Below, in pieces: positions 46,126 through 64,000 of a stretch of 64,000 bases of DNA. The stretch's first letter is position 1. Each line of letters begins with the position of its first letter. The DNA is taken from contig JBAJFG010000572.1 in assembly GCA_037903475.1 (NCBI GenBank), positions 124,001 to 188,000 of the forward strand, written 5' to 3'. A program made the position numbers and the translations under genes. Below the pieces are notes generated by a model that worked only from the letters and a program-made list of their open reading frames with translations, did not search any database and was not told the DNA's origin. This stretch comes from Ancylostoma caninum. Lineage: Eukaryota > Nematoda > Chromadorea > Rhabditida > Ancylostomatidae.

Positions 46126-46359
46126 CTAAAATGTTGCTCATTCTGGCTCTGCACCGACGGTGAGCGGTCGTGTGGACTTTGCCTTCTGCTAACCCTTCCG
46201 GCCATCCTATTGATCCTGGACCCCTATATTAGGGCATTTACTTAGTCTAGCCCACCTGTCGTCAGAATTATTAGATCGTCTTCTGCTTCGGATTCAGAGG
46301 GTTACTCTTCTAGTGCCGTCAGCCAACTTGTACTGATCAGCTCTCAAAACTGCGATACC

Positions 46360-47283
46360 TTGGTGGCAAGAGGTAAATCACTACTGACACGTCGATTATT
46401 GCCACCACACGAGATGAAGTGTTCCTGTTCCTCGTTTTTTGAGTTTGATCGTACCATCTTGTGTTCGATCGTCTTCGCTTTTGTCCATCTTTTTATTGTT
46501 CCGGTGCAAATTTTCGACATGGGCAGATCTGTTCGCCGAAATCTTAAGGAAACAAATGGTCAACAGATCGATTCGCCTCCACCATCGCCTGCGCCGCTTA
46601 GCCTTGAGGAAGCAATGGAGCAGCTGTACGCATCTCCACGAGTTCCTGAATGTATCAAGAAGGCCTTCGGCTCTCTAGTCAACGAGCTGTCATCGGTGCG
46701 GCAAGAAAGGGACCAGCTGCGTGAGGAGAATCGCCTGCTCCGCGAACAGCTAAGTTTGTCACACGCTTCTAAGCAGTGCTCCACGCAATCCACTGTTGAT
46801 CATGAACCTTTATCTCCCTCTCCTCATTTGGATTGTCATGAAACTGAGAGATTGCGTTCTATTGTAGTCGCGGGAATACCTGAATCTAAGAGTCCTTTTC
46901 TGAAGCAGAAGTTAGAATACGATTACAGTAGTGTAATGAATGTACTCTTTCATTTGGATATCCAGTGTTACCCTGTTGCAATTTGTCGTCTTGGTAGGCC
47001 GAAAGAAGGTGTTAACCGACTGCTGAAAGTTGTCCTACCCACTAGGTTCTTTCAACGTCTTGCTGTACAGAGGGCTTTCTGGCTCAGCTCCTTTCCGAAA
47101 AAGGGGATTTTCCTTCGTGAATCCCTTACAGCGTCGGAAAGAGAGCGACGCAAGAAAGCCAGGCTTAATCTTACCAATCCCACCGACCATAACTCTTTAC
47201 GGTTTTCTTCATTGGAAGTCTCAGAATCTAACATGAATATTGTTGTATCGAATGCTTCTTCTTCGAATGTTTCGGGAAACTAG
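46360..47283 (+). CDS. LINE ORF1 (CR1/Jockey-like), plus-strand copy
   Basis: An open frame of 307 codons. The middle carries a leucine-rich coiled coil (residues about 105-140, RQERDQLREENRLLREQL). It is followed by a conserved block (IVVAGIPES, VAICRLGRP, KVVLPTR) shared with the ORF1 of the minus-strand LINE at 60085-60642. ORF1 proteins of this type coat the element RNA. The true start may be the ATG at 46519 (MGRSVRR), since upstream residues are not shared with the other copy. ORF2 begins about 50 bases downstream. Confidence 0.82.
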   Translation: MVARGKSLLTRRLLPPHEMKCSCSSFFEFDRTILCSIVFAFVHLFIVPVQIFDMGRSVRRNLKETNGQQIDSPPPSPAPLSLEEAMEQLYASPRVPECIKKAFGSLVNELSSVRQERDQLREENRLLREQLSLSHASKQCSTQSTVDHEPLSPSPHLDCHETERLRSIVVAGIPESKSPFLKQKLEYDYSSVMNVLFHLDIQCYPVAICRLGRPKEGVNRLLKVVLPTRFFQRLAVQRAFWLSSFPKKGIFLRESLTASERERRKKARLNLTNPTDHNSLRFSSLEVSESNMNIVVSNASSSNVSGN

Positions 47284-47333
47284 ATGCATTTCGTCGGACT
47301 GTTACTCCTCGGGCCACTACAGACCTATCTGTA

Positions 47334-48755
47334 TTGTCGCTTTCGTGTTTTTACTCTAATATAAGATCGCTTCCAAAGAATTGTACTGATTTAAATTTGT
47401 CTCTCGGACCTAAATATGATTTATACCTTTTTTCCGAAACGTGGCTCAAGGATCATCATTCGATTACGTCAATGTTTGATGCCTGGGTGAATGACTATGT
47501 CATTTTGCGTTGTGACAGAGGCCAGAAATCCGGTGGGGGAGTAGCTATCTTCATACGTAGTAACTTAACTCACTCCGTGGTTTTTAATGAATCAGTTCCA
47601 AATGGGTATGAAATTTTAACTGCGGACATTTTCCATGCTGATATGTGTTTTAGGGTTATTTTGATATACAGACCGCCCTCTGCCTCAGTTGCTGTCACAG
47701 AGCAGCTTGCTAAGGTTATTGGTGATCTATCCACTACGGAATCGCCTGTCATCTTAGTCGGCGATTTTAACTTACCTGAAATTCAATGGGCAACGTGGAA
47801 TGATCAGAATCACTTTGCCGAAAATTTTTCAGTTATGCTTCACTGTCACGATTTCAAGCAATACTTGTCGGAACCAACCAGAGGAGCTAGTTTCTTAGAC
47901 CTACTGTTTTCAAACAATGCAGATCTACTCCACAAAATCTCTGTTCAGTCACCGGTTGGTGGGAGTGACCATTTTAGTGTATCCTTCGAGGTGCAAGGGT
48001 TTGGTATTGTACAAACACCTATTCTTAAGAGACTATTCAATAAATGCGATTACTCTGCCATTAACAGCTATCTATATAATGTTTCTTGGGTCGACTCTTT
48101 CGAGTCGGTTTCTTCGGTGGATGAAAAATACACTATGTTTCTCTCTATTCTCGACCATGTAATAGATCAGTTCGTTCCTTGGGCTTATGTATTCCCTAAA
48201 AAACCAACCTTCCTAGATATCTCCAAAACATGTGGGACCATAAAGATTGTCTTTTTCACTATGCCAAAATCAGTGGTGATTGAACAGAGTACAAGTCTTT
48301 CTCTCAAAGATTTTCGAATCAGATCAAGAAGTATAATAAGAGCATAGAAAAAAGGGTAGTGGGATCTAAAAATCAAGAGCGTTTTTTCAAGTATATGAAA
48401 AATAGACTAGGAACGAAATCTCATTTCTCAGGTTTGAAACTTAACGGAGAGGTTTTACTTAATGATCACGACAGAGCTAACGCACTGGCACGTGAATTCA
48501 ACACCGTCTTCATTGAAGATGATGGGATCATTCCTGCCTATCATCTTGAGCCTGTAACCAATGAAAGTGATTTCCCACACTTTGATGCGCTTGAGGTTTA
48601 CGAACACCTAGTCAAATGGCCACATTTCTATTCTGTTACACCTGATAGAATCCCTTTCTTATTCATTAGAAATGTTGCTCATACTATTGCATACCTCCTT
48701 TCTTACATTTTCAACCAGTCAATAATGTTCTCGGAAATTCCTAGACTATGGAGAG
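47334..48755 (+). pseudogene. LINE ORF2 (endonuclease and start of reverse transcriptase), truncated
   Basis: 47334-48347 encodes an apurinic-type endonuclease: the N-terminal SNIRSL, FSETWL, VGDFNLPEIQW and GGSDHFSV motifs are present in order. The frame then shifts; 48359-48750 continues the linker and the first reverse-transcriptase motif region. The sequence stops being LINE-like at about 48755, before the catalytic YxDD region. The element is therefore truncated at its 3' side and unable to copy itself. The break coincides with an inverted repeat and the start of BEL/Pao sequence. Confidence 0.82.
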
Positions 48756-48783
48756 CACCTCTCTCTCTCCATAGTCTAGGAAT
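48737..48783. repeat. 19-bp perfect inverted repeat at a transposon junction
   Basis: Arms 48737-48755 (ATTCCTAGACTATGGAGAG) and 48765-48783 are perfect inverse complements around a 9-base spacer. The left arm is the last recognisable LINE ORF2 sequence, so the right arm looks like an inverted copy made during repair or rearrangement. Confidence 0.9.
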
Positions 48784-48829
48784 CCCAGTGAGAGCACCTG
48801 AAGAAACAAATCACTCCCGCCGATTTAGC

Positions 48830-49440
48830 TAAGAGCGAAAACCAGAATGTCCTAGGAGTGTTGTGGAACAAAAGATGAGCTTGTCCTTTCGTGCAACTAC
48901 CCTCCAAAAGCGAAAGTGACAAAGCGATCAGTATCCGAACAAGTTGCAGCAATATACGATCCCCTTGATTGGCTAACTCCACTCACGATGGCCGGTAAAA
49001 GATTTCTCCAATCCCTATGGAGATTCGACTACGGCTGGGACGTGGAGATATCTGAGAAACATCAGAAGCAGTGGAAGGATATCATCCAAGTAGTCAACGG
49101 ATTGCAGTGTGTGATACCACCAGAAGTCGCTCAAATTGACACGCCAACAAAGCTTGTGCTGTTCGCGGATGCGAGTGGACAAGCAATGGCAACGTATGCT
49201 TACCTTGTTCCTCACCTTGGAAGCAATCCACTTGTTGGCAAATCAAAAATTCCCTCCATCAAGGAAAAGGTGACTACTCCAAAATTGGAGCTCAACGCCA
49301 TCACAGTGGCTACCCGAGTTGCACACTCAATCTTTGCTGCAATACACCACCGCACGAGGATTTCAGAAATGGTCATCCTGTCCGTTGGCCACTGCTCCAT
49401 AGTTTTTCGAGTGGTTTTGGCCCGAAACCTACCGGAATAA
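48830..49440 (+). pseudogene. BEL/Pao retrotransposon pol fragment (RT/RNase H connection)
   Basis: Translation contains the BEL/Pao hallmarks LGVLWN, then after a one-base frameshift near 48865 AAIYDPLDWLTPL and KRFLQSLW, and further on FADASGQAMATYAY and PKLELNA. These belong to the region between reverse transcriptase and RNase H of nematode BEL/Pao elements (Pao retrotransposon peptidase family annotation). No protease, integrase or LTR is adjacent, so it is a fragment. It abuts the truncated LINE directly. It may come from the same element as the 3' part at 51944-53270, separated by later insertions. Confidence 0.85.
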
Positions 49441-50342
49441 GACGAATTCAGTTGGAGATGTGAATGTGAACGAACTTGGACGCGTCGAATGTGTTCTAGG
49501 TAGTGATTTTGCGAGCTTTTTATGTACCTGATGTTGTCTTCTGTTTATGAGCGGTTACTACTTACAACTTGTCAGCCGAGCTGTGGAAGAACACAATGTA
49601 GGTATACATGTTACATCTATATATTGATCTAGAGATTTTGTTTTGAATTCGAGTTATCGGAATCGTTTCCCTTTCAAGTAGACATCGTTGTACAGGTGCT
49701 TCAGAACAGTGTTCGATCGGTGCAGTATTAACTTGTAGGTAAATGTGGGATGGTCCTGCGCTCCGACACTTCTACAATTTTTCACGTTCCGGTGTGGTTT
49801 TGTGCAAGACCCCCCCCCCCCCCCCCCACAGAAATCACAGGATAACACGTCTAACCAGTGAAAGATTGGAAAAGATCAAAAGCATGGGGCTAGAGCATGA
49901 CTTAGTGAATGGAACTCCCAACTAGGTCAGAAAATCATACAATCGACCTGCACAGGACCAAAAAAACATCAAATCGGGGCACTGGAACAACGAATACTTC
50001 CAACAAGGAAAACCCTGGCAGTACTACTAGAACACACCTGAACAGTGAAAACAATACACAAAGTGTCGAAGCAGGGGACTACAACAATGTATGAGAAAAA
50101 CCATTCTGAGAACTCAAATGCAGAAAAAAATCTCTGAACATACAAATAAATGAGAAAAAACCGCAGTGCTTACTTTCATGTCTTGGAAACAAACATCCTT
50201 GGCGAGGAACCCGGCTCAAAATTGCAGTCCCCGCAGAGATCACCACTGAAATTCGCTAACTTTCTCTAAACATTCTAGACCACAAACGGTACCACGAGGT
50301 CCAAAACAGTCTATGGAAACCCATGATCCCCGCTATATCGGG
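49441..50342. other. Spacer between BEL/Pao fragments, no supported gene
   Basis: Contains a C homopolymer of about 17 bases near 49810-49826 and short open frames without motifs. A pseudogenised remainder of the BEL/Pao element is possible but not recognisable. Confidence 0.4.
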
Positions 50343-51616
50343 GTGTGCATCAGGGATGAGCGGATTATCCGTATCCGGTTATCCGTTTAGCCGTTATCCG
50401 TGCGTTTTGGCCTATCCGTTATCCGCACCGTTATCTCGGCGCCGGATAACGGTGCGGATAAGGCCGGAAGCAGTGGCTTCATATCACACGTTTCCAGTAG
50501 AGGAGAGCTTTCATTTCAAAAAATTCAATCGTATCCCTCGCCTAGCGTGTTTTCTGTCATATGATTTGGAATCTTGAATTGAGGTAGGAAGAGGTAAAGC
50601 TGACTTGTAGATGCCTGGAAAGAAAGGCTCTTGCTCAGGTTCCTTGGGGTGACCGACAATGTGAGGCAATAATCTAGGAAGTTACCTACTTGTGAGATTA
50701 TCAACAACGTTGCCTAACGATGTGACCATTAAAAATGTTGAAATTAATGACCTCACAGCTCACCGATGAGCAATGCTTCTTCTTCACGTTTTTCATCTTA
50801 ACCAGACATTGAATCCTACTGTTTCCATCAATTTTCGCATCTATTAATCAAATAGCGTTTAGGACTTCATACGATCATAATAGTCAGTACCAAAAAGTTC
50901 ACCAGAATGCCGCGAAAAAAAATATATGAAGCAGGCTTAAATGAGGGCACACAAAAAATCGCGTTGTCATCAGTGGGTTTAGGAACGAAACCTTGAAAAG
51001 CCTTTGTCATGGAAACCTTTGTACTGGAAATGTCGTGGGCATGTATCATCTCAAGCAATAGTATACCACTCAAAATATAGAACATCCAAACATCACTGGG
51101 AACTGTTGTTTTTATGGCAAACTCTAGGTACCATGCACGTACATACTAGACGTTTGAGTCGACGGGATTTTTTTCGAATAGTCGACATTTCGAGTCACTC
51201 GAAAGTCGATTTATTCGAAACTCGACTCGATTTGACTCGGTCTAGTCAAATGTCTAATGCATACACCTCTTTATGCGCCATGCCCAACGTCGTTCTGAGA
51301 GTGTCGAATTTCGATGACTGACGAGATGAGGAATTCGTGCTAATTCTCTTTCACAAAATTCATGTCGTATTTCCTCTCTATCATTTTTAGTGTTGTAGAA
51401 GGTGGTGTTATGTAGCATATGGGACTATCCATTATCTAACATGTCATTCTGTTGAAAGTTAACGAAAGAATACGTGTATACAACTCATTCGTTGCTGAAC
51501 ACTTATCCGTTATCCGTTATCCGGTATCCGTTATCCGGTCATTTTTGGCCTATCCGTTATCCGCACCGTTATCCGGGTCGTGGAAAATTTCGTATCCGCT
51601 CATCCCTGGTGTGCAT
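50343..51616. mobile_element. hAT-like non-autonomous element with perfect 8-bp target duplication
   Basis: Element 50351-51608 is flanked by GTGTGCAT on both sides (50343-50350 and 51609-51616). Termini CAGGGATGAGCGGA and TCCGCTCATCCCTG are the same as in the 210-bp elements at 15415 and 17293. Each end carries a cluster of TTATCCG units, in the style of subterminal transposase-binding repeats. The interior shows no transposase frame. It splits the BEL/Pao remains. Confidence 0.9.
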
Positions 51617-51943
51617 GTGATTTTGCGTGGGTACGTAAATGAGCGACGTTCAGCAAGGCGCGACGGGGCGACGCAACGGCTTCGTTACCCGTCGCGTCGC
51701 GCGTGTTGTGGTGAAAAAAGTATAAACACTCGTTTAAGTCAAGTCACGAGTATACGGAGCGTTTCTGGAAGCGCGAACAATATCTCAGCGGCCTTCGAGA
51801 AACACACAAACTCGGGATCAATAGCAAGCGAGGATCACGAATAAATACGGCGGTAAACAAAGAGGTGCTTATTTCAAACCCAGTAGCCACGTAATTCATG
51901 GAAAATTGGAAAAATTCGTAAACTGAAGCAATCTCCAACGGCA

Positions 51944-52159
51944 GTGGTACGTGAAGCAGAGATTCAACTACCGAAAGGACGCCTCATTGGCCGACCTGTT
52001 AATCTCCTCGTGCCAATTGAACTGGGCGACAGCGAAGGAGATACCAACAAAGAAGGTACCAACAACAGAGACGCATCAAACTGTCATGGACGAAACTCTC
52101 GAAGTTTCCGAAGGGATACGCTACAATTTACGTGTAACGCAAAGGCTCGACTACAGTAG
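51944..52159 (+). pseudogene. BEL/Pao integrase C-terminal tail
   Basis: The frame contains a VREAEI...LPKGR...RPVNLLVPIEL pattern, the usual end of BEL/Pao pol just after the integrase. The envelope-like region follows on the same strand in an overlapping frame. Everything upstream in the integrase is missing here, probably because of the hAT insertion and decay. Confidence 0.75.
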
Positions 52160-53270
52160 TCTCCTCCACGGTACCGCTAACATGCAACTGACAAGAACGT
52201 TTCCAACAACACTTCAGTTCCTCTCATTGTTAACACTGTTCAGTGCACCAGTCAGAGCAGTTTCAAGCCCATTATCTTTCGTTCGGGGTTTCGTATGGTG
52301 CTCTTCAAGAGGAGTTGAACTAACATCGTTCAATATCCAGACGTACGAACTATGCGCTGGAGAATACTGCATCATTAAAGAAAACCCGCCGAAGAAGGAA
52401 ACAATACAGTGACCTCCAGAGATCACCTTGCAGGAGTATTCCATTCAGTGGAAAATTTCCGATGGCTAGCAAGTGACAGTTGTTGAAACCACCGCGCTAA
52501 ACCCAGAATGTTCACCTCGAGCAACGATTATAGTCATCGCGGTCGGTCTTTACCTTACTAGTGCACTGATCTATGTTCTTTGCTACGTTCCGGAAAGACT
52601 AGGACTACTATGTCGAATTCTCTGCAACCTTCTTGCCCTCTGCATTAGAGCAGCACCGCGAGCAGGTTTCCGACTCTGGCACCACCTTCGACGCAGACGA
52701 GAACAATTCCGAAGAACACCAAGGATAGACGTGTTCCTCAACACTCCGCTTCTTGCGGTAGTTCTCCTTGCGTGCATCTCAGCTGCCGAATCATGCCAGA
52801 AACGTTGACATTTTCGAGCTGAAAACCAACGTATGCATCCTGTCATCTACTGGCAACGAGACATGCACGATCGACACGACGCAGATGCTGAAGTTGAACA
52901 CATTCCATCAACAAGCCTGCTTCAGAGTACAAAAGGAAGGAGAACGCTCAAAGAAATACGACTAGAATGGAAGAAAATTCAGCTGATGTGTGACCGACAG
53001 ACAATCATGTTCACGAGAAACACACAACAGAAAGTGGTGGACTCAAAACGATGCCCTCAATCAGGTAGTTGTAAGGAAGAAAAATGCGCACGAATTAACA
53101 CTACGGCGCTACTTCCTGAACTACGACAAGGGAACGATTTCCCAGGAGTCACATTCTGTGTGGAAAGCTGTGGGGGACCAGGCTGTGGATGGTTTTATAT
53201 CAATAGCGGCTGCCTGTTCTACAGAGTCTTCGCAACGTGCTATGCCAAAACGACGTGCAAAAGATGAGCT
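51951..53270 (+). pseudogene. Phlebovirus-type envelope-like gene of a BEL/Pao element, broken
   Basis: Directly after the pol tail come frames 51951-52412, 52473-52808 and 52833-53267, broken by stops and frame changes. The first holds a signal-peptide-like hydrophobic segment (LQFLSLLTLF). The second has two strongly hydrophobic segments flanking an Arg-rich linker. The third is cysteine-rich, with a CGGPGC core followed by a GCLFYR segment, the pattern of the phlebovirus G2/Gc-like fusion glycoprotein domain known in nematode Cer-type BEL elements. This would be an envelope-like membrane fusion protein of the element, here inactive by visible breaks. Assignment rests on the cysteine pattern and position after pol. 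Confidence 0.75.
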
Positions 53271-54100
53271 TGGAGATCAACCTGATGCAAGGGAGGCTCA
53301 GAGCATTGAGAGTATCCTGACAAAAAAGCTGACGACTACACCTCATCAACAGCGCCGGAAGCCCACTCGTAGCAGTGTGGAACGCGCGCGGACCGAGGAC
53401 ACGCCGCACTTCACCAGAGATTATACCCTCACGAGCACAGGAAAGGACAGGTCGTTCAACGTCAAGAAGAACTCGTACACCAGAGATTCGTCATCGTTCT
53501 CGATCAAGACGAGCTCGCACTCCAGCTCCGAGAATGAGATCGCGCACGCGAGGAAGCAGACACCATGGGTCGACACGACGATCGCCTGAAACAAGCCCAC
53601 GCCACCACCACGACGAGTCCCGTCAAGGACCAAGCCACACCAGCGGCTACGACGATCGCAGAGGCATCGAACGAGACCACGAGGATCAAAGACGGAACCG
53701 TCATCCCTCACCAGAGGATCAGCTGCGCCGGGGAGTATAGAGAGTCGCAACTCTCTAGTGATCTCATTTATTGCTTATGTATCTCAATATTAACAATAGC
53801 TTTCTATGGATGTAATCAATCAATGTATCTGTAGCTTGACTTTGACTTGTTATTCAGTTAAAAGTGCACAGCTGCGTCTCTGTAAGAAACTGTCTTTCCT
53901 TCAAAAAAAGGACCAGGTGGCCCAGCTGCGACCCCGTCTCCATGAGCACAGTATAAATAGGGTTCGCAGCTTCGATGTAGTAGTTCCTCTCTTTCCTCAC
54001 TTTTACTTTCAGTTATCCTAGCCTGAATTATTATCTGTACATTGAAATGTAAATATAGATAGTGATATAATAAAGGTTTAATTACCCAAGTTTGAGGCGT
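53271..54100 (+). other. Arg/Ser-rich frame and probable 3' end of the BEL/Pao element
   Basis: The plus frame 53375-53740 is unusually rich in Arg, Ser and His (repeated RS/RT/RR pairs); an overlapping frame (52990-53589) is also open, so coding status is uncertain. Further on, 53860-54095 has an AATAAA-type signal (54070) and could be the 3' LTR, but no matching 5' LTR was found, so this is not established. Confidence 0.35.
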
Positions 54101-54203
54101 GGTTTGCCCGAGAGGCATAGACTGTTGGGGACAAAAGACCCACGTGGCAACGGCAATCAACTGGTGAAGCGAAAGCTAATTTAGAGGTTCAAAAACCCTC
54201 ATT

Positions 54204-54344
54204 TCGGGACATGCGGAGGAGGGAACCGGGAATTGCGGAGGAATAAATCGGGAATTGCGGTGCGTAATGTACCGGCTCTCCTGACCAAGCCCTCCGGGTG
54301 CCCTGCAGTAGTCCTACGCATGTGTGCGATACTTGTCTGAGATT
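54204..54344. repeat. Dispersed repeat (GGGACATGCG...CCTGCAGTAGTCC), copy 1
   Basis: About 140 bases are shared with 61990-62132, including the block CCCTGCAGTAGTCCTACGCA. No coding content. It lies just upstream of a TTAA-flanked element, as does the second copy at some distance. Confidence 0.75.
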
Positions 54345-54509
54345 GCTTCCTCTATGAAAAAAGTGGCCTCTTAAAAAAAGGGTCACCCTTTTTGAGGTCT
54401 GTCATGGATACCATCGTTTACGCCAGCTCACACTAAAACTTTCTCACCATAAAAATCTCGGAAGCGATTTCTGAGATAAGACTCTGTTGCTGTTAGGGCA
54501 CATACAGAG

Positions 54510-54974
54510 TTAAAGGCAGCAGGAGCTGAAATTCTCGTCTCTGAGCTGAGCTGCGGGTGGTGAAGTACAGACTCAGCACATCATAAATGTGAAACGAACA
54601 CAGACAATGATGGCTTACCTGCAGAGAAAATGGAACATTCGTCGCGAACACGCCTGGCCGTGTTCGCGCGCGGACGAGTTTTCCCCGGAGCGAAAGCCAT
54701 TGGGGCGCGTGGTTTTGGCCCAGTCCCGTCATGAAACCCTGTGAATTGAATGCATTCCGTTCTCCCTTTGCGCCAAACCACGCACCGCAATGGCTTTTGC
54801 GCCGGGGAAAACTCGTCCGCGCACGAACACGGCCAGGCGTATTCGCGACGAATGTTCCATTTTCTCTGCAGGTAAGCCATCATTGTCTGTGTTCACATTT
54901 ATGATGTGCTGAGTCTGTAATTCACCACCCGCAGCTCAGCTGAGAGTCGAGAATTTCAGCTCCTGCTGCCTTTG
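54510..54974. mobile_element. TTAA-flanked palindromic element family C, copy 1
   Basis: Begins TTAAAGGCAGCAGGAGCTGA and ends with its inverse (the right flank is mutated to TTGAA). The two halves are inverse copies over about 200 bases, including CTGCAGAGAAAATGGAACAT and the opposite strand of it. No conserved coding frame; open frames seen on both strands are by-products. Shares the AGGCAGCA tip with MITE family A. Confidence 0.88.
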
Positions 54975-55329
54975 AAAGCGCTACATATGTTCTGTGTCAG
55001 GAACCAAAATAGATGCTTTCGTGAGTAGGAAGTCCGCTCAAATTGCAAGAGAGACACTTCAGAGAATTAAACAATGAATGCCGTTTTTAGAGTGAATATG
55101 ACAATAAGAAACTCAATACACATTACTATAAGAGAAATTTCCAGAGTGATTATGATTATAAAAAGCGTATTATACGTTATTATAGGAGAAAGATGGAATG
55201 CGGGGCAACAAGTTGTGGGAAAATAGGCAGAACTTACTGCTCTGTGATGTCTGCCCTCGGGAGGTTCTCGGATTATCTGCCATGTTCCTCCGCAGCCGTC
55301 AGAGGCTTTTATCAAAGTTCGGGGGTATG

Positions 55330-55560
55330 TCGCACCCCCGACTATAGTCCTGTAGATCAGGAGGGAAGGATCTCCGCTTGCACTATAGTCCTCGAGGACT
55401 GTAGCACCTTCCGTCGCCGTCGCCGGCGACTGTGAGGCCGATACGCATCGATTGTGGGCGGAGCGGTGGCGGCGGCAGCCGTCGCCGGCGACTGGCCATC
55501 GCCAACATCGGCGGCCGCCAATGTTGGTGACTGTGGCGTCGGTGCGTATCGATTACTCAG
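55330..55560. repeat. GC-rich repeat with GCCGTCGCCGGCGAC units
   Basis: CGTCGCCGGCGAC recurs here and again near 61150, together with the palindrome CTATAGTCCTCGAGGACTGTAG. The wording of both loci is similar enough to be one repeat family with rearranged pieces. No gene. Confidence 0.55.
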
Positions 55561-55698
55561 ACAAAGCGCCGGAAATTCCGCAGCAGAATACCGGAACTTC
55601 CACAGGTAACCAGTTGGTTTTTCTGCTGTTCTGCTGTGGAATTTCCGGTATTCTTCTGTGGAAATTCGTGTTCTGCTGCGGAAATTCCGAAACGATGG

Positions 55699-55700
<2 letters not shown>

Positions 55701-55791
<91 letters not shown>

Positions 55792-55799
55792 AAAAAAAT
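55701..55799. repeat. AC dinucleotide microsatellite followed by an A run
   Basis: Uninterrupted AC units from 55701 to 55787, then about a dozen A. The open frames through it on both strands are artefacts of the repeat. Confidence 0.97.
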
Positions 55800-56775
55800 T
55801 AGGTGAGGGGCGACCGAATTACCGAATTAGACGGTCACAATCCAGATAATGCGTGCACAAGCTGCTGAGTTTGAGATCCTACCAATGGATCTTGTATTCG
55901 TTACATAAAGACTGGAATATGGAAAATTTGAAATTGTGAGAAGATGTGACAGATGAGGAGCAACAACGATGATGTGAATAGGTTATTTATTTATTTATTT
56001 ATTTATTTAATACGCTCAAAAAGCGCACCAAGGACTAAAATAACTAGACTAAACGAGAAAGTACTGCATCTTACCAAAAAATAAGTAGAAGCAGTGTGTC
56101 TATAAGTGGGACAGCGGGGATCAAGCATTACGATTTCGACGTTATAATAAATAATCATTAGCTGAAGACAAAGCAGATGTGGTAGTACTAGAAGGCCGAG
56201 GCTATGGAAATAAAATATGATCAATGCCAAGAGAAGCGTAAAGCGAGTGGAACTAATGTCAGGCCCCACATCAACCAGCAAAATGCCCTCGTCCATTGAT
56301 AGGGTCATAGGAGCCACACCGGAAGTTCGACAAGCGGGTATACTGGTTAACCCCGCTCAACCGGTGGACTGGTGCCGACATATAGCCATACCCACGCTTG
56401 CTAGGCACGTGAAACGAACATGATAAGAAGAGCAAAGGTACACCACTTCTACCGAAGATCCAGCTGCTCCCGTAAGATGAAGACTAATGACGAAAAGTGT
56501 GCTTGATCCATGCCAAAAGAACAAATTCGTGAACAAAACAAACTCAAGACAACCATCAAAACATTGCAGATCTTTAGTACTGGTATTTGTCTAAGTGGAC
56601 CTCAATTAAAGCACCGAGAAGGAAAACAACACATTTCTAGGGAATAACTAGAATGATTAATCATCTCCGAGGGTCTAACGAGCAGAAACACAGATCGCTG
56701 GATTGAAACCAAATCAAGAAGCTGACATACCTAAACAGACTACAAAGTAAAATTGAGTGTCATCATTCGCAGAAA

Positions 56776-57547
56776 TCAGGTATTACTAGCACTAGAAAGA
56801 CGAAGAACTTGTGTGATGTTTAGCCGAAAAAGTTTCCTCTTGAATACCGAGCTATTTTTTGAATAAAGAAGTTCAGCCGGTAACAAGTCAAACCATCTTG
56901 CAGTACGCCACATAAGCGAGTTAAAGAGTAGCGAGTGTTTTTTGCGCTGTATCTTAGCGTACTGCAAGTTAAACCTACCTGATCGTGTGCTGGCCGGTCT
57001 AAAGATCCAATACTTACTGGCTATCAAATTTACCTCTTTTCTTAGTATGCGAAAACAAAAGGCAAGGTCATTGACTGCTCTTCTGTGTTTTCAAATTGAT
57101 TAATTTCAAACGTTCTTCATAACTTGGTAAATCAGTATATCTCGTCGCAGGAAATAGTCTCAGGAAAAGAATTCTCGTTAATGTTTGCTGTACTTTTTCA
57201 ATTCTTCAGATATCTTTCCTGCGGGTCGGACTCCACAGCTGTGAGCAGTATTCTAAGTGCGGGCGAACATAGACTTTGTACAAGCGAAGAATTATTTTGG
57301 CATCCTTTGCATGGATATTCCGGAAAATCAAGAAGAGAGCGGAGAAAGCTTTCTCAATCACATTATCTATATGGTCATTGAACGAAGGAGTTGAATTGAA
57401 AATGACGCCTAGATCTCTGACTGAGTCACATTTCTTAAGAAGAATGCCGTTAATTTCATATGAGAAGCTTGCTTCTTCACCAAGATGCATAACGCAACAC
57501 TTATCCGCATTGATTGGTAAATTCCAAGCTGCTGCCCACGCTGACAT
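56776..57547 (-). pseudogene. LINE ORF2, C-terminal part
   Basis: 57547-57206 encodes the thumb-like end of the reverse transcriptase (the segments INADKCCVMHLG and RDLGVIF, then YVRPHLEYCSQLW, are typical of CR1/Jockey elements). 57027-56776 continues with the C-terminal basic helix and the SLMWRTARWFDLLP segment. Frames are broken between and upstream of these blocks, so the protein is not intact. Confidence 0.8.
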
Positions 57548-57808
57548 ATTTTCAAGAGATTGTTTTAGTGCACAGTGGACAGTATCACGACTTTCGCTTT
57601 CGTAAATACCGTAAATCTTTATATCATCAGCATAAATTTGTACTTTAACATGAGGTGATGTTTTCAGAATTGATGCGAGATCGATGGTTAAATTGGAAAT
57701 AGAAGGGGCGAGAGAACGCCCCCTTGGGAAACTCCACTGGGGGATCGAAATCTGTTCGAGAAATTCTGCCCACTCTTACAGAGAAACACCTGGATGAAAG
57801 GTACGATC

Positions 57809-58279
57809 TTAAAGGCAGCAGGAGCTGAAATTCTCGACTCTGAGTTGAGCTGCGGGTGGTGAAGTACGGACCCAGCACATCATAAATGTGAAACGAGCAC
57901 AGACAATGATGGCTTACCTGCAGAGAAAATGGAAGATTCGTCGCGAACACGCCTGGCCGTGTTCGTGCGCGGACGAGTTTTCCCCGGCGCTAAAGCCATT
58001 GCGGCGCGTGGTTTTGGCCGAGTCCCGCCATGAAACCCTGTATATTGAATGCATTTCGTTTTCCCTTTGCGCCAAACCACGCACCGCAGTGGCTTTTGCG
58101 CCGGGGAAAACTCGCCCGCGCGCGAACACGGCCAGGCGTGTTCGCGACGAATGTTCCATTTTCTCTGCAGGTAAGCCATCATTGTTTGTGTTCGTTTCAC
58201 ATTTATGATGTGCTGAGTCTGTACCTCATCACCCACAGCTCAGCTCGGAGTCGAGGATTTCAGCTCCTGCTGCCTTTAA
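57809..58279. mobile_element. TTAA-flanked palindromic element family C, copy 2, nested in a LINE
   Basis: TTAA and AGGCAGCAGGAGC at the left, the inverse plus TTAA at the right. It has the same two-armed structure as the copies at 54510 and 63233. It interrupts the reverse transcriptase frame of the minus-strand LINE within the catalytic domain, so it inserted after the LINE. Confidence 0.92.
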
Positions 58280-60004
58280 CCAGGATAGAAGCTGACCACG
58301 TATTCCTAGTTGTTCCAGCCTCATAAGTAGTTGTGAATCCCAAACTCTGTCGAATGCTTTCGAGAGATCAATATAGATAATGTCAACAGATTTCTCGTTA
58401 TTAAGAGCTAAATACCAATCAAAAATGCTATCTACGAGATTTGTAGCAGTTGAAGAGCCTGCTACAAACCCATGCTGTTCCGCTGGGATGACATGAAATC
58501 TGGAGAACCACGACTGCATTTTATCCCTTAGTATCATTTCCATTATTTTAATCGGAACAGGTGCAATGCTGATTGGCCGAAAATCAGATACAAGTTGTGC
58601 CCTAGGTGTTTTCGGAATTGCAGTCACAATAGCCTCTTTCCACATGTCAGGTACTTCACCGAGAAGAAAAGATATATTGAAGATATCCGTTAGAGGGCCA
58701 CAGAGAGATGTAGCACACTTTTTAAAAATTATAGACGGGATACCATCGTAGGTTTCAAAAAGAGAAGGTTTTAATTTTTTAAGGAATCTAAGCGTATCGT
58801 GAGGATGGAAGAAAATGCAACTGAGAGAGGGCAGAATGCGTCTGTCTAAATCGGGTAGTTGAGAACAGTGGTCTTCGTCTGCAATATAAACGCTTGAAAA
58901 GTATTGTGCTAAAGCAGAAGATTTGTCAACATCGCTCGTGAAAATTGATCCTGAAAGATCAGAAAGGGTTGGCAACACAGCATGGGATTTTGTTGCTCTG
59001 AGCAAATATTCAAACAAGGATCTCATGGAAGGTTTGGATGCCATTCTTTTCTCACGGTTTGCAAGAAATTTATTGATATGGTGGTCAATATCGGAACATA
59101 CTTTTTTGTAGAGTGGATCTTGCAAGGGATGAGCAAGTTGTTCAAAAAGTCGTGTTTTCTGTTCAAAAAGAGATTTAATGTGAGATGGATATTTATCTTT
59201 ATGTGGACGTGGGAAATAGAACGGCACAAACTTGGATAAAGCATTATAGACGCACAAACAAAAGCGACGGTAAACGTTACTGGCAGAAGAGTAGTTGTCA
59301 AAGATTGAAAGCCAATCGATAGCGGCCAGATATCCATTTAGGGAGTTGAAGTCGGTTCGCAAGAAATCTGGTTTGGGGGGAAGGAGTGTATGTGAGGAAA
59401 TACCAGCAACATTGAAGGATATAATGCTATGGTCGGAGTTGGAGAGAGGAGCATTGTTTCGAACGTTAGAGATAATATTTGATGTACACAGGACAAGATC
59501 GAGAATGTTTTCACCATGGGTGGGCTGTAACACGAACTGTGATAGAGATGAATTCGTAAAGAAATCAAGAAAAGAACGCGCCTGGGAATTAAAAGCTCTA
59601 AGGTTCTGCCAATCTATTTTCAAGTTGAAGTCGCCAAGAACAATTGTTTGTAGGTGCATAGATACAAGATCAGCCAGCAAGTTCAGTAGATTTTCATCAT
59701 CAATATTTGTAGAATTAGGTGGCCGGTACACTAAGACAAAGCAAATTATTAGCGAAGAAGCAGGAGTTGATACATCTAGACATAGAACATCAGAGGACAA
59801 CTTTGATGAAAACTGAACTTCTTTATCGTAAAAATTATGCTTGCTGATACAGCAAACCCCACCCCCTTTTCTGTTACCTCGATCAACTCGAAAAATAAAA
59901 TATGGCAAACTACCTAAAATTTCAGCATCCAGAATTCTACTCGTTAGCCACGTTTCCGTCACAAAAACAAAATCGAACTTGGCATCGCTAATAAATTTTT
60001 GCAA
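58280..60004 (-). pseudogene. LINE ORF2, endonuclease and reverse transcriptase N-terminal part
   Basis: From 60004 downwards the frame is open for about 575 codons. It shows endonuclease motifs (FVTETWL, VLGDFNLKIDW, SNSDHSII) followed by reverse transcriptase motifs (SDFRPISIAPV, EQHGFVAGSS, IYIDLSKAFDRVW). The last codons of the open frame past 58280 come from the inserted palindromic element. The YxDD catalytic box would lie on the far side of the insertion. The protein resembles ORF2 of nematode CR1-like elements. Confidence 0.88.
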
Positions 60005-60084
60005 AACAGGAACCTTTTTGATTAAACTGCGTGCATTTAGTACAGCACAGCTGATGCTCTGCCTAGTAGAGGTACCACGCGATT

Positions 60085-60642
60085 TTACTGGTTTCCCGGC
60101 TGCCTGCGGTTAGAAAGTTCCGAAACATGCTTTATCTCGCCGCGATATACCACCCATTCTTTCGTTGCCTTACCGTTATTCCTTTCACGGACTTGCTGCC
60201 GTAGCTCGAAATCTTGTCTCCGTTCTTCAGCACTCATACTTCTGCGTATAAATATGTTGGAAAATCCTGCATTCCTTAGAAGATGCGCATTCGCAAGGGC
60301 AGTTCGCCAGTGAGATCTTGTAGGAAGCAAGACTTTAACGAGCCGCGGTCGAGCAGGGTCTGGCTTTCCCATGCAGAAGACCTGGACAGGATGGCATTCA
60401 ACCTTCAGCACGTCTAGCAAGTCGTCTACTTTCTGGTCAAGGTCTCGTTGACGTTTCGTTGGTGGGAGGCTAAGGTCGGCTTCTGGAATCCCGCTGATTA
60501 CAATGCTCCTTGATCTCCGATCTTCTTCTGCACAAAGTGCATTGTCGTGAGGAATCTTCGCCGAAAGCGCTAGGACTAATTGCTTGATGGCGGGATCCGG
60601 ATTTAGTTCAAAAATGCATCTCACTATTTCATTCGCTGACAT
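60085..60642 (-). CDS. LINE ORF1, minus-strand copy
   Basis: An open frame of 185 codons containing SRSIVISGIPEADL, VFCMGKP, LVKVLLPTR and MSAEERR, matching the ORF1 block of the plus-strand LINE at 46360-47283 (SIVVAGIPES, RLGRP, KVVLPTR). It lacks the N-terminal coiled coil of the other copy, so the real frame may start upstream through a damaged region (60643-60770). Nucleic-acid-binding role inferred from position and family. Confidence 0.75.
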   Translation of the reverse strand: MSANEIVRCIFELNPDPAIKQLVLALSAKIPHDNALCAEEDRRSRSIVISGIPEADLSLPPTKRQRDLDQKVDDLLDVLKVECHPVQVFCMGKPDPARPRLVKVLLPTRSHWRTALANAHLLRNAGFSNIFIRRSMSAEERRQDFELRQQVRERNNGKATKEWVVYRGEIKHVSELSNRRQPGNQ

Positions 60643-61079
60643 CGAGTTATAATCTTCTGCGGTGAACTGGCTAGGAACCTGCTATGTCAGATTACCTGAA
60701 TTATTAGATGAATTTTGACTCATTTCAACAGAGGATCCCTTCTTCTTAGCAGTTTTGGGTGGCATCGTCAGGATCAAAATACAATCCAATCAATAGAGAG
60801 ACCAGGCAGCAAGAACGATTGAGGTTGTTCAAGGAAGAAGAATGGTTAAATGAAGATTCACCCACTGTCAGGCAGTTAAGTGTGCGAGAAAGATATAGTA
60901 GCAAGGGAGAAAATGGAAGAAAATGATGTAAGAATTCGGATAAAGGGATGAGAAAAGGATATGATGACAGAGCTGCGGTAACGCAGCCGCACGGTACCAG
61001 CGCACGTTCGGATCCTCTGGTAATGATGAAGGTTCGCAGCAAATTCGACCAGCCAATCAATCAATGTGCCGCTTCATTA

Positions 61080-62988: not shown

Positions 62989-63217
62989 CGGCGGTTATTT
63001 ATGGTTGATGTCAAATTCGACGGGGTGATATACAATGCAGAATGGAGAGGAGAAGAGAATTCTTGGCAGGAAGCGAATGTTCTTGGTTTTTTTCCGTCGC
63101 GATGGCCGCGCGAACAAAACTCCGTTTCGATCTTCGCCGCATTGAGACGTCACGAATCCCTCGTGAAATTTCGGGCCGACGCGTCAAATTTGACGCGCAT
63201 CAACCATAAATACCGCC
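62989..63217. mobile_element. TIR element (GGCGGTTATTTATGG), shorter copy, 229 bp
   Basis: The left end GGCGGTTATTTATGGTTGAT and right end ATCAACCATAAATACCGCC are inverse complements. A TAC triplet is found outside both ends. No open frame is conserved with the longer copy. It lies immediately before a TTAA-flanked element. Confidence 0.85.
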
Positions 63218-63232
63218 TACGACGCGCTCCTA

Positions 63233-63703
63233 TTAAAGGCAGCAGGAGCTGAAATCCTCGACTTTGAGTTGAGCTGTGGATGATGAAGTACAGACTCAGC
63301 ACTTCATAAATGTGAAACGAACACAGACAATGATGGCTTACCTGCAGAGAAAATGGAACATTCCTTGCGAACACGCCTGGCCGTGTCCGCGCGCGGACGA
63401 GTTTTCCCCGGCGCAAAAGCCATTGCGGTGCGTGGTTTGGCGCAGAGGGAAAACGAAATGCATTCAGTTCACAGGGTTTCATGGCGGGACTCGGCCAAAA
63501 CCACGCGCCGCCGTGGCTTTCGCGCCGGGGAAAACTCGTCCGCTCACGAACACGGCCAGGCGTGTTCGCGACAAATGTTCCATTTTCTCTGCAGGTAAGC
63601 CATCATTGTCTGTGTTCGTTTCACATTTATGATGTGCCGAGTCTGTACTTCACCACCCGCAACTCAGCTCAGAGTCGGGAATTTCAGCTCCTGCTGCCTT
63701 TAA
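63233..63703. mobile_element. TTAA-flanked palindromic element family C, copy 4
   Basis: TTAAAGGCAGCAGGAGCTGA at the left and the inverse at the right with TTAA. Full length, and closely similar to the copies at 54510 and 57809. Frames crossing it on both strands are not genes. Confidence 0.92.
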
Positions 63704-64000
63704 GGCAGACTACCCCGCACCAAGAAGAGACTATTTCCACATATTTAATTCGGCTCCTTGGCAAATGCCAAGGCTGGCAGCGTTCATTGCTGGACCCTTG
63801 TACTCACGAACGCTGCGGTCTTTCGAACACTGTGTTAGGGAAGAGTTTGGAATAAGTTGTTGGTCCAGTTGAACAACTTTCCGTCCTCTATCAGTGCTCT
63901 ATCATTCTGTCAGTGTTCTGCTCTTCGCATTGTGGGCATTCCGACTAAGTATCAGACTGAACTTGAGCTTGGTAACATCTAAAATCTGTGCTGAAAATCC
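63704..64000. other. Window end, no supported gene
   Basis: About 300 bases after the last TTAA element. I see only a small palindrome (CCTTGGCAAATGCCAAGG near 63751) and no exon. Confidence 0.5.

What the first reader, a model, noticed from the sequence alone, without database searches (positions are those of the whole stretch)
51944..53270. BEL/Pao element carrying a phlebovirus-type envelope-like gene
After the pol tail the sequence holds a signal-like segment, hydrophobic segments and a cysteine-rich block with CGGPGC and GCLFYR, the pattern of phlebovirus-like fusion glycoproteins reported for some nematode BEL (Cer) elements. It suggests a once envelope-bearing, possibly infectious retroelement lineage in this species.
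Basis: partly seen in the sequence, partly recalled or inferred. Interest (0 to 1): 0.75.

Follow-up and report, generated by a model that had tools for sequence, protein, structure and literature searches.

The report
Decayed hookworm retroelement with viral envelope
A hookworm genome carries the broken remains of a virus-like jumping element whose envelope gene resembles the entry protein of phleboviruses; the kind is already known from a related hookworm, and this copy is dead.

Summary
Stop-free pieces at 52762-53264 match Pfam Phlebovirus_G2 (6e-8 and 6.9e-37). The best solved-structure match is 7a4a, Gc of Atlas virus, the belpaovirus of the hookworm Ancylostoma ceylanicum (PMC9094657). 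The block lies in a broken BEL/Pao copy: Pao peptidase, nested repeats where integrase should be, pol tail, Gn-like part, Gc cut off mid-domain near 53237, then (linked by position) a 448-bp LTR. The only other copy found by DNA (C153) has peptidase, integrase, pol tail and Gc in that order. The two differ evenly over codon positions (51/45/47), as expected of unconstrained decay. The genome, probably A. caninum, has 123 scored Phlebovirus_G2 places over cut-off, and at least one insertion with identical LTRs. This is a new dead member of a known kind. One lead goes further: the nearest env subfamily carries a 545-residue open frame (ORF X) between env and the 3' LTR, related to hypothetical proteins of three Ancylostoma species. 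My literature searches (listings and passages) showed no report of it. Whether the window copy ever had ORF X is unresolved.

The parts
48856..49384 (+). Pao-type peptidase (Peptidase_A17) remnant of pol
   Evidence: Pfam PF05380 E 1.8e-32; 48969-49384 is 91% identical to the collinear piece at C153
49400..51711 (.). repeats where integrase should be: repeat A (49400-50350 plus 51608-51711) interrupted by repeat B (about 50344-51613)
   Evidence: own-genome DNA search, 40 of 1871 candidates scored: query 1-951 and 2209-2312 recur next to each other at many places, query about 945-2214 recurs separately
51735..52147 (+). pol C-terminal tail (DUF5641 region), read in two frames
   Evidence: Pfam DUF5641 only below cut-off (E 0.0084); tblastn 35-55% to pol tails of other copies
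52122..52409 (+). N-terminal (Gn-like) part of env, with a signal-like stretch from 52182
   Evidence: tblastn to L007 (E 1e-7 with, 2e-8 without composition correction) and L061 (E 1e-11 without) in the collinear place
52476..52802 (+). Gn-like transmembrane segment, basic tail and second hydrophobic (Gc signal-like) segment
   Evidence: tblastn to L003-L008 (E 2.5e-9 to 7.8e-6 with composition correction; 3e-11 to 2e-7 without); hydropathy peaks
52798..53237 (+). Gc fusion-protein remnant (Phlebovirus_G2, about profile 3-148 of 324), split over two frames, with CGGPGC and GCLFYR
   Evidence: Pfam; 7a4a E 1.3e-12; alignments and tree
53333..53735 (+). Arg/Ser-rich open stretch before the LTR; possible remnant of a gene downstream of env
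   Evidence: 53497-53735 is shared with another LTR-bearing place, C398; similarity to ORF X inconclusive
53736..54183 (+). LTR of 448 bp, preceded by GGGGAG; taken as this element's 3' LTR by position
   Evidence: recurs genome-wide; four copies, L055, L057, L058 and L060, have matching 5-bp flanks; a 30-bp core (54068-54097) occurs in pairs about 8.2 kb apart. Not found beside env at C153

Best explanation
A dead, fragmentary insertion of an env-bearing BEL/Pao element (belpaovirus) of the Atlas-virus kind in a hookworm genome, probably Ancylostoma caninum. Shown: Pao pol remnants followed by a phlebovirus-type Gn-Gc env region, on one strand and in the order seen in other copies; no continuous reading frame; repeats where integrase should be; Gc lost past mid-domain; even divergence over codon positions from the only near copy. 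Inferred by position: the LTR at 53736-54183 is its 3' LTR. Inferred from what is known of Atlas Gc (PMC9094657): the ancestor made a Gag-Pol-Env polyprotein whose Gc, a class II fusion protein, inserted a fusion loop into acidified endosomal membranes, allowing spread between cells or individuals. This copy does nothing now.
For: Pfam G2 and Peptidase_A17; 7a4a and phlebovirus-type Gc chains as PDB matches; relatives from Nippostrongylus and Cooperia; collinear second copy at C153 with integrase; collinear pol tail, TM and G2 in L003-L007; codon-position differences 51/45/47 against 23/17/59 for L003 and L006 and 39/32/100 for env of C160 and C13; a Cys of the CGGPGC block present in 51 of 51 other rows but replaced in the window (one place counted twice among the rows).
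Against: DUF5641 in the window piece is below Pfam's cut-off. Peptidase and env are 2.3 kb apart and are joined by inference from C153. DNA similarity to C153 stops at 53211; neither the window LTR nor the C160 LTR is found at C153, and C398, which shares the LTR and 239 bases before it, shows no env or pol-tail match in the 4.2 kb fetched. So the LTR is tied to env by position alone, and 53238-53496 by nothing else. Only one LTR is present, so no LTR dating is possible.
Confidence: 0.93

Rival explanations
1. The LTR at 53736-54183, with the Arg/Ser-rich stretch before it, belongs to a different BEL element that landed next to the env fragment.
For: The window LTR is not found at C153; at C398 it occurs with 239 bases of shared upstream sequence but no env or pol-tail match in the 4.2 kb fetched; its 30-bp core also occurs in BEL elements with no env found.
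Against: Same strand and right place; LTR start and preceding GGGGAG agree with C160, whose env is the nearest relative of the window's; Arg/Ser-rich frames precede the LTR in both.
Confidence: 0.15
2. The G2 block is a domesticated host gene: an env copy kept by the worm for cell fusion or antiviral defence.
For: Some own-genome G2 places have long open frames; Atlas Gc has fusion activity (abstract of PMC9094657).
Against: In the window the frame is broken, Gc is truncated, a conserved Cys is replaced, and divergence from the nearest copy is even over codon positions.
Confidence: 0.02
3. An endogenised fragment of a real phlebovirus M segment, inserted without a retroelement of its own.
For: Sequence similarity to phlebovirus Gc chains in the PDB.
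Against: Stronger similarity to nematode proteins and to Atlas Gc; env follows a Pao pol tail, as in other copies.
Confidence: 0.01
4. Peptidase and env pieces are a chance pile-up of separate BEL fragments.
For: The region is rich in nested repeats; the pieces are 2.3 kb apart.
Against: Both occur in the same order and strand at C153, 91% and 84% identical, with integrase between.
Confidence: 0.02

Closest known systems
Atlas virus, endogenous belpaovirus of Ancylostoma ceylanicum (PMC9094657; Gc structure 7a4a)
   Same: Pao-type pol followed by Gn-like and Gc-like env; G2 sequence similarity; hookworm host. An own-genome place, L002, is nearly but not fully identical to 7a4a over 321 residues.
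   Different: The window env is far from that clade (37% identity to L002 over 89 columns), is broken and truncated, and its presumed LTR is 448 bp against 271 nt reported for Atlas.
C160 and C312 elements of the same genome (L062, L061)
   Same: Nearest G2 rows: 74% and 73% identity over 97 columns, support 0.988; GGGGAG before the LTR and a TATA start as in the window (and L061 sequence).
   Different: Env and ORF X frames of C160 are open where fetched (235000-239000 was not); in C312 the frame changes before Gc. C160 has a 520-bp repeat 100% identical at both ends and GGCTG on both sides. Both carry ORF X. The C160 LTR shares little with the window LTR beyond a 28-bp stretch.
C. elegans BEL elements with phlebovirus-like Env (Cer13 per PMC9094657; Cer7 recalled)
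   Same: Reported phlebovirus-like Env; Cer13 is the nearest RT neighbour of Atlas (PMC9094657 section 6).
   Different: No Cer sequence was available here, so no direct comparison was made.

Membership tests
Belpaoviridae (BEL/Pao) | Pao-type pol domains | tested here: met
   Peptidase_A17 E 1.8e-32; pol-tail similarity; integrase is present at C153 and missing in the window
Belpaoviridae (BEL/Pao) | flanking LTRs of 0.2-1.2 kb (PMC8742986) | tested here: inconclusive
   one 448-bp LTR on the 3' side, linked by position; no second copy in the window or on contig C157 among the 35 matches
Belpaoviridae (BEL/Pao) | polypurine tract of about 10 nt before the 3' LTR (PMC8742986) | tested here: inconclusive
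   GGGGAG directly precedes the LTR in the window, L054 and C160, shorter than 10
Belpaoviridae (BEL/Pao) | primer-binding site and reverse transcriptase motif | not testable with these tools
   the 5' end and RT core were not found in the window; tblastn with an own-genome pol frame hit only the peptidase
Phlebovirus-type Gc (Pfam Phlebovirus_G2) | profile match over the family cut-off | tested here: met
   32.5 and 127.6 bits against 22.9
Phlebovirus-type Gc (Pfam Phlebovirus_G2) | complete ectodomain with C-terminal anchor | tested here: not met
   homology ends near profile position 148 of 324
Phlebovirus-type Gc (Pfam Phlebovirus_G2) | conserved cysteines of the CGGPGC block (taken as the fusion loop from recall) | tested here: not met
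   one Cys, present in 51 of 51 other rows, is replaced in the window
Atlas-like Gn-Gc env following pol | pol tail, Gn-like segment with TM, then Gc, in order | tested here: met
   collinear with L003-L007 and L061, though broken across frames

The most novel reading that the evidence does not exclude
A clade of hookworm env-bearing BEL elements, the clade nearest to the window copy, carries a fourth gene, ORF X, between env and the 3' LTR: a mostly helical protein with an Arg/Ser-rich region. It could be an accessory protein working on the element's RNA, as CERV does for the unrelated Cer1 element. The window's Arg/Ser-rich stretch before the LTR would then be its last remnant.
Probability: 0.35. 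Interest if true: 0.6.

Novelty: new member of a known kind. Interest (0 to 1): 0.35.

Why it matters
Phlebovirus-type envelopes are not a curiosity of one element: this genome has at least 123 G2 places over cut-off, from dead relics such as this one to an insertion with identical ends. That gives a fossil series for studying how a retroelement lineage that captured a viral fusion protein expands and decays. If ORF X is a real gene of these elements, invertebrate retroelements with genes beyond gag, pol and env become directly testable in hookworm RNA data.

Tried and rejected
IMG/VR viral contigs with the 152-residue piece: 3 stretches matched a pattern, none confirmed. Repeat search in 47000-56000, self-comparison of the window and repeat search in L011: no LTR pair. 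Neprosin_AP on the G2 piece, DUF7622 on the Gn-like piece and COG6_N and similar on ORF X are below their cut-offs and were set aside. Structure prediction of the A. duodenale ORF X relative, from an alignment of 3, gave a low-confidence helical model (mean pLDDT 60, pTM 0.25), so no fold search was made. ORF X as a copy of gag: tblastn on the C160 gag region gave 23% over 86 residues, E 0.002 without composition correction, and not in the gag frame. ORF X against the 3' domain of the C148 family: no blastp match. Window tail as ORF X: 32-33% to L061 and L062 at E 1e-7 and 6e-9 without composition correction, nothing with it. In shuffles (five subjects) the score against X of L061 is reached by 80 of 1000 local shuffles and nearly by the reversed sequence (93 against 95); P0005 23 of 1000, P0006 81, P0007 5, and the A. 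ceylanicum relative P0008 0 (109, reversed 70). I call this inconclusive. The literature search on accessory genes listed mostly irrelevant papers; on A. caninum LTR elements listed nothing on this subject.

Full report
What was checked. The stated motifs are in place. Scanned piece by piece, 52762-52962 and 52809-53264 match Phlebovirus_G2 at 6e-8 and 6.9e-37, in different frames; 48856-49437 matches the Pao peptidase at 1.8e-32; 51887-52156 gives only a sub-threshold DUF5641 match. In the PDB the 152-residue piece finds 11 distinct sequences up to E 1: 7a4a first (1.3e-12), then ten glycoprotein sequences whose names include RVFV Gc and SFTSV Gc. A protein search scored 8 candidates and kept 4: Nippostrongylus, two from Cooperia, one unnamed.

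Precedent. PMC9094657 (outline and abstract, part 1 of 10 of the text, and sections 6, 7, 15 and 17 read) describes Atlas virus of A. ceylanicum: a Gag-Pol-Env polyprotein with Gn-Gc env and identical 271-nt LTRs, one of nine complete elements, with an active class II fusion protein, PDB 7A4A. The ICTV profile PMC8742986 (whole text) gave the family features used in the membership table. PMC11445058 and PMC3118150 were seen as passages, PMC10309623 as outline, abstract and passages.

Which element. The window is C157:124001-188000 of a 348-Mb genome. A DNA search with 51880-53300 found two places: itself and C153, 84% identical. At C153 the peptidase piece (91%) and the pol-tail and env piece (84%) lie in the same order and strand, with Integrase_H2C2 between and Phlebovirus_G2 beyond. 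So these window pieces are one element. The place of integrase is filled by two repeats, one nested in the other. DNA similarity to C153 ends at 53211 and protein similarity to other copies near 53237.

Decay. In the window-C153 alignment 1248 of 1454 aligned bases agree. Of the 206 differences, 143 fall in five segments read in the window frames, 51, 45 and 47 on the three codon positions (summed). As a control, 7 of 28 pairs among L001-L008 had over 300 aligned bases; four of these are near-identical, and the three informative ones (L003, L004, L005 against L006, nearly one comparison) show strong third-position excess, such as 23, 17 and 59. Env of C160 against C13 gives 39, 32 and 100, against the broken C227 copy a milder 33, 32 and 47. 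Similarity in the window runs through all three frames, with stops between the Gn-like pieces. A Cys of the CGGPGC block present in 51 of 51 other rows is replaced. The copy is dead.

The LTR. Window 53736-54183 recurs: of 35 matches, six places besides the window match 410 or more of its bases at 83-87%. Four copies, L055, L057, L058 and L060 (the last interrupted), have matching 5-bp flanks; L059 matches with one mismatch; L056 is truncated and L054 has internal sequence on its 5' side (my reading). A 30-bp core (54068-54097) occurs in pairs about 8.2 kb apart on C148, C180 and C75, 10 kb on C90 and 2.3 kb on C333; for C148, 260 bp at the two ends are identical. Against the link to env: this LTR is not found at C153, and C398 shows no env or pol-tail match in the 4.2 kb fetched.

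Genome-wide. Phlebovirus_G2 gave 497 candidates, of which the best 123 were scored, all over cut-off; by my count 104 of these 123 have no stop inside the match, a set chosen by score. The window copy is not among them. In a tree of 52 rows (window, 48 locus rows with one place counted twice, 3 proteins; 40 loci picked by me from the 123) the window groups with L019 and L022, from C160 and C312 (support 0.988; 74% and 73% identity over 97 columns). The rows are about 100 residues long, so deeper branches are weak. L011 was dropped because its match held a stop, P0004 because it was short, L009, L010 and L012 were not used.

Species. ORF X of C160 is 99% identical to an A. caninum protein (65% of the query covered), 85% to A. 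duodenale (72%) and 69% to A. ceylanicum (58%); L002 is nearly but not fully identical to Atlas Gc. A. caninum is the likely source; this is inference.

ORF X. The C160 element has a 520-bp repeat 100% identical at both ends and GGCTG on both sides (my reading), a Gag with DUF1759, zinc knuckle and protease, and env with Phlebovirus_G2 1.3e-91 plus Phlebo_G2_C; 235000-239000 was not fetched. The base run after its 5' LTR looks to me like a tRNA-Gly primer site, from recall only. Between env and the 3' LTR, overlapping the end of env in another frame when read stop to stop, lies a 545-residue open frame (560 in C312). Pfam finds nothing over cut-off. A genome search gave 10 matches among 20 candidates: the two open frames, five broken pieces at C227, two diverged pieces at C13, one at C15. 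At C13 and C227 it follows env; at C15 no env or pol was found in 5.5 kb. It was not found in L001-L003, L005-L007, L010, L011, L054, L063, L064 or window 50001-55000, some of which hold little sequence past env. Between C160 and C227 it differs 73, 53 and 83 by codon position, and against C13 0, 1 and 5 over 50 bases, mild evidence of coding constraint. C160 against C312 gives 5 synonymous and 5 non-synonymous, uninformative. Whether the window had ORF X is open.

Literature on ORF X. Searches over open PMC text (listings), and a term search inside PMC9094657 (accessory 0, overlapping 1, about C. elegans elements), showed no report of such a gene; subscription papers and preprints are not covered. 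The parallel with CERV rests on the abstract of PMC10309623 and is an analogy of place and possible role, not of sequence, which was not compared.

Verdict. The copy is an ordinary dead relic of a described class; ORF X is the part worth following.

Noticed in passing
L062:408-2042 (minus), L061:2778-4457 (C160 and C312): ORF X, a 545-560-residue open frame between env and the 3' LTR of env-bearing BEL elements, with relatives annotated as hypothetical proteins in three Ancylostoma species.
   Followed up: partly
L063:2-2533, with near-identical L082 and L083 (C148, C180, C75): A BEL family with no env found in Pfam scans of L063 and L082, whose pol frame runs on after DUF5641 into a long extra stretch with a Cys/His-rich end that weakly resembles the zinc-knuckle region of the C160 Gag (22%, E 4e-4); the 5' frame of C148 has DUF1759 but no zinc-knuckle hit at E 0.01.
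   Followed up: partly
window 46246-48344 (+) and 57206-60681 (-): Frames of non-LTR (LINE-type) elements: endonuclease matches at 47232-48344 and endonuclease plus reverse transcriptase at 58232-60109; the neighbouring frames are assigned by position.
   Followed up: no
window 54512-54973: Long near-perfect inverted repeats (120 nt at 95% and 82 nt at 96%); similar reading frames recur near 57850-58240 and 63150-63855.
   Followed up: no
G000:C3:281109-282068 (L001) and G000:C223:2114919-2115881 (L002): The two best-scoring Phlebovirus_G2 places of the genome; L002 is nearly identical to Atlas Gc 7a4a.
   Followed up: partly
P0009 (A. caninum): An annotated A. caninum protein that joins a G2 part to an ORF X part, probably a gene-model or deletion fusion.
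   Followed up: no
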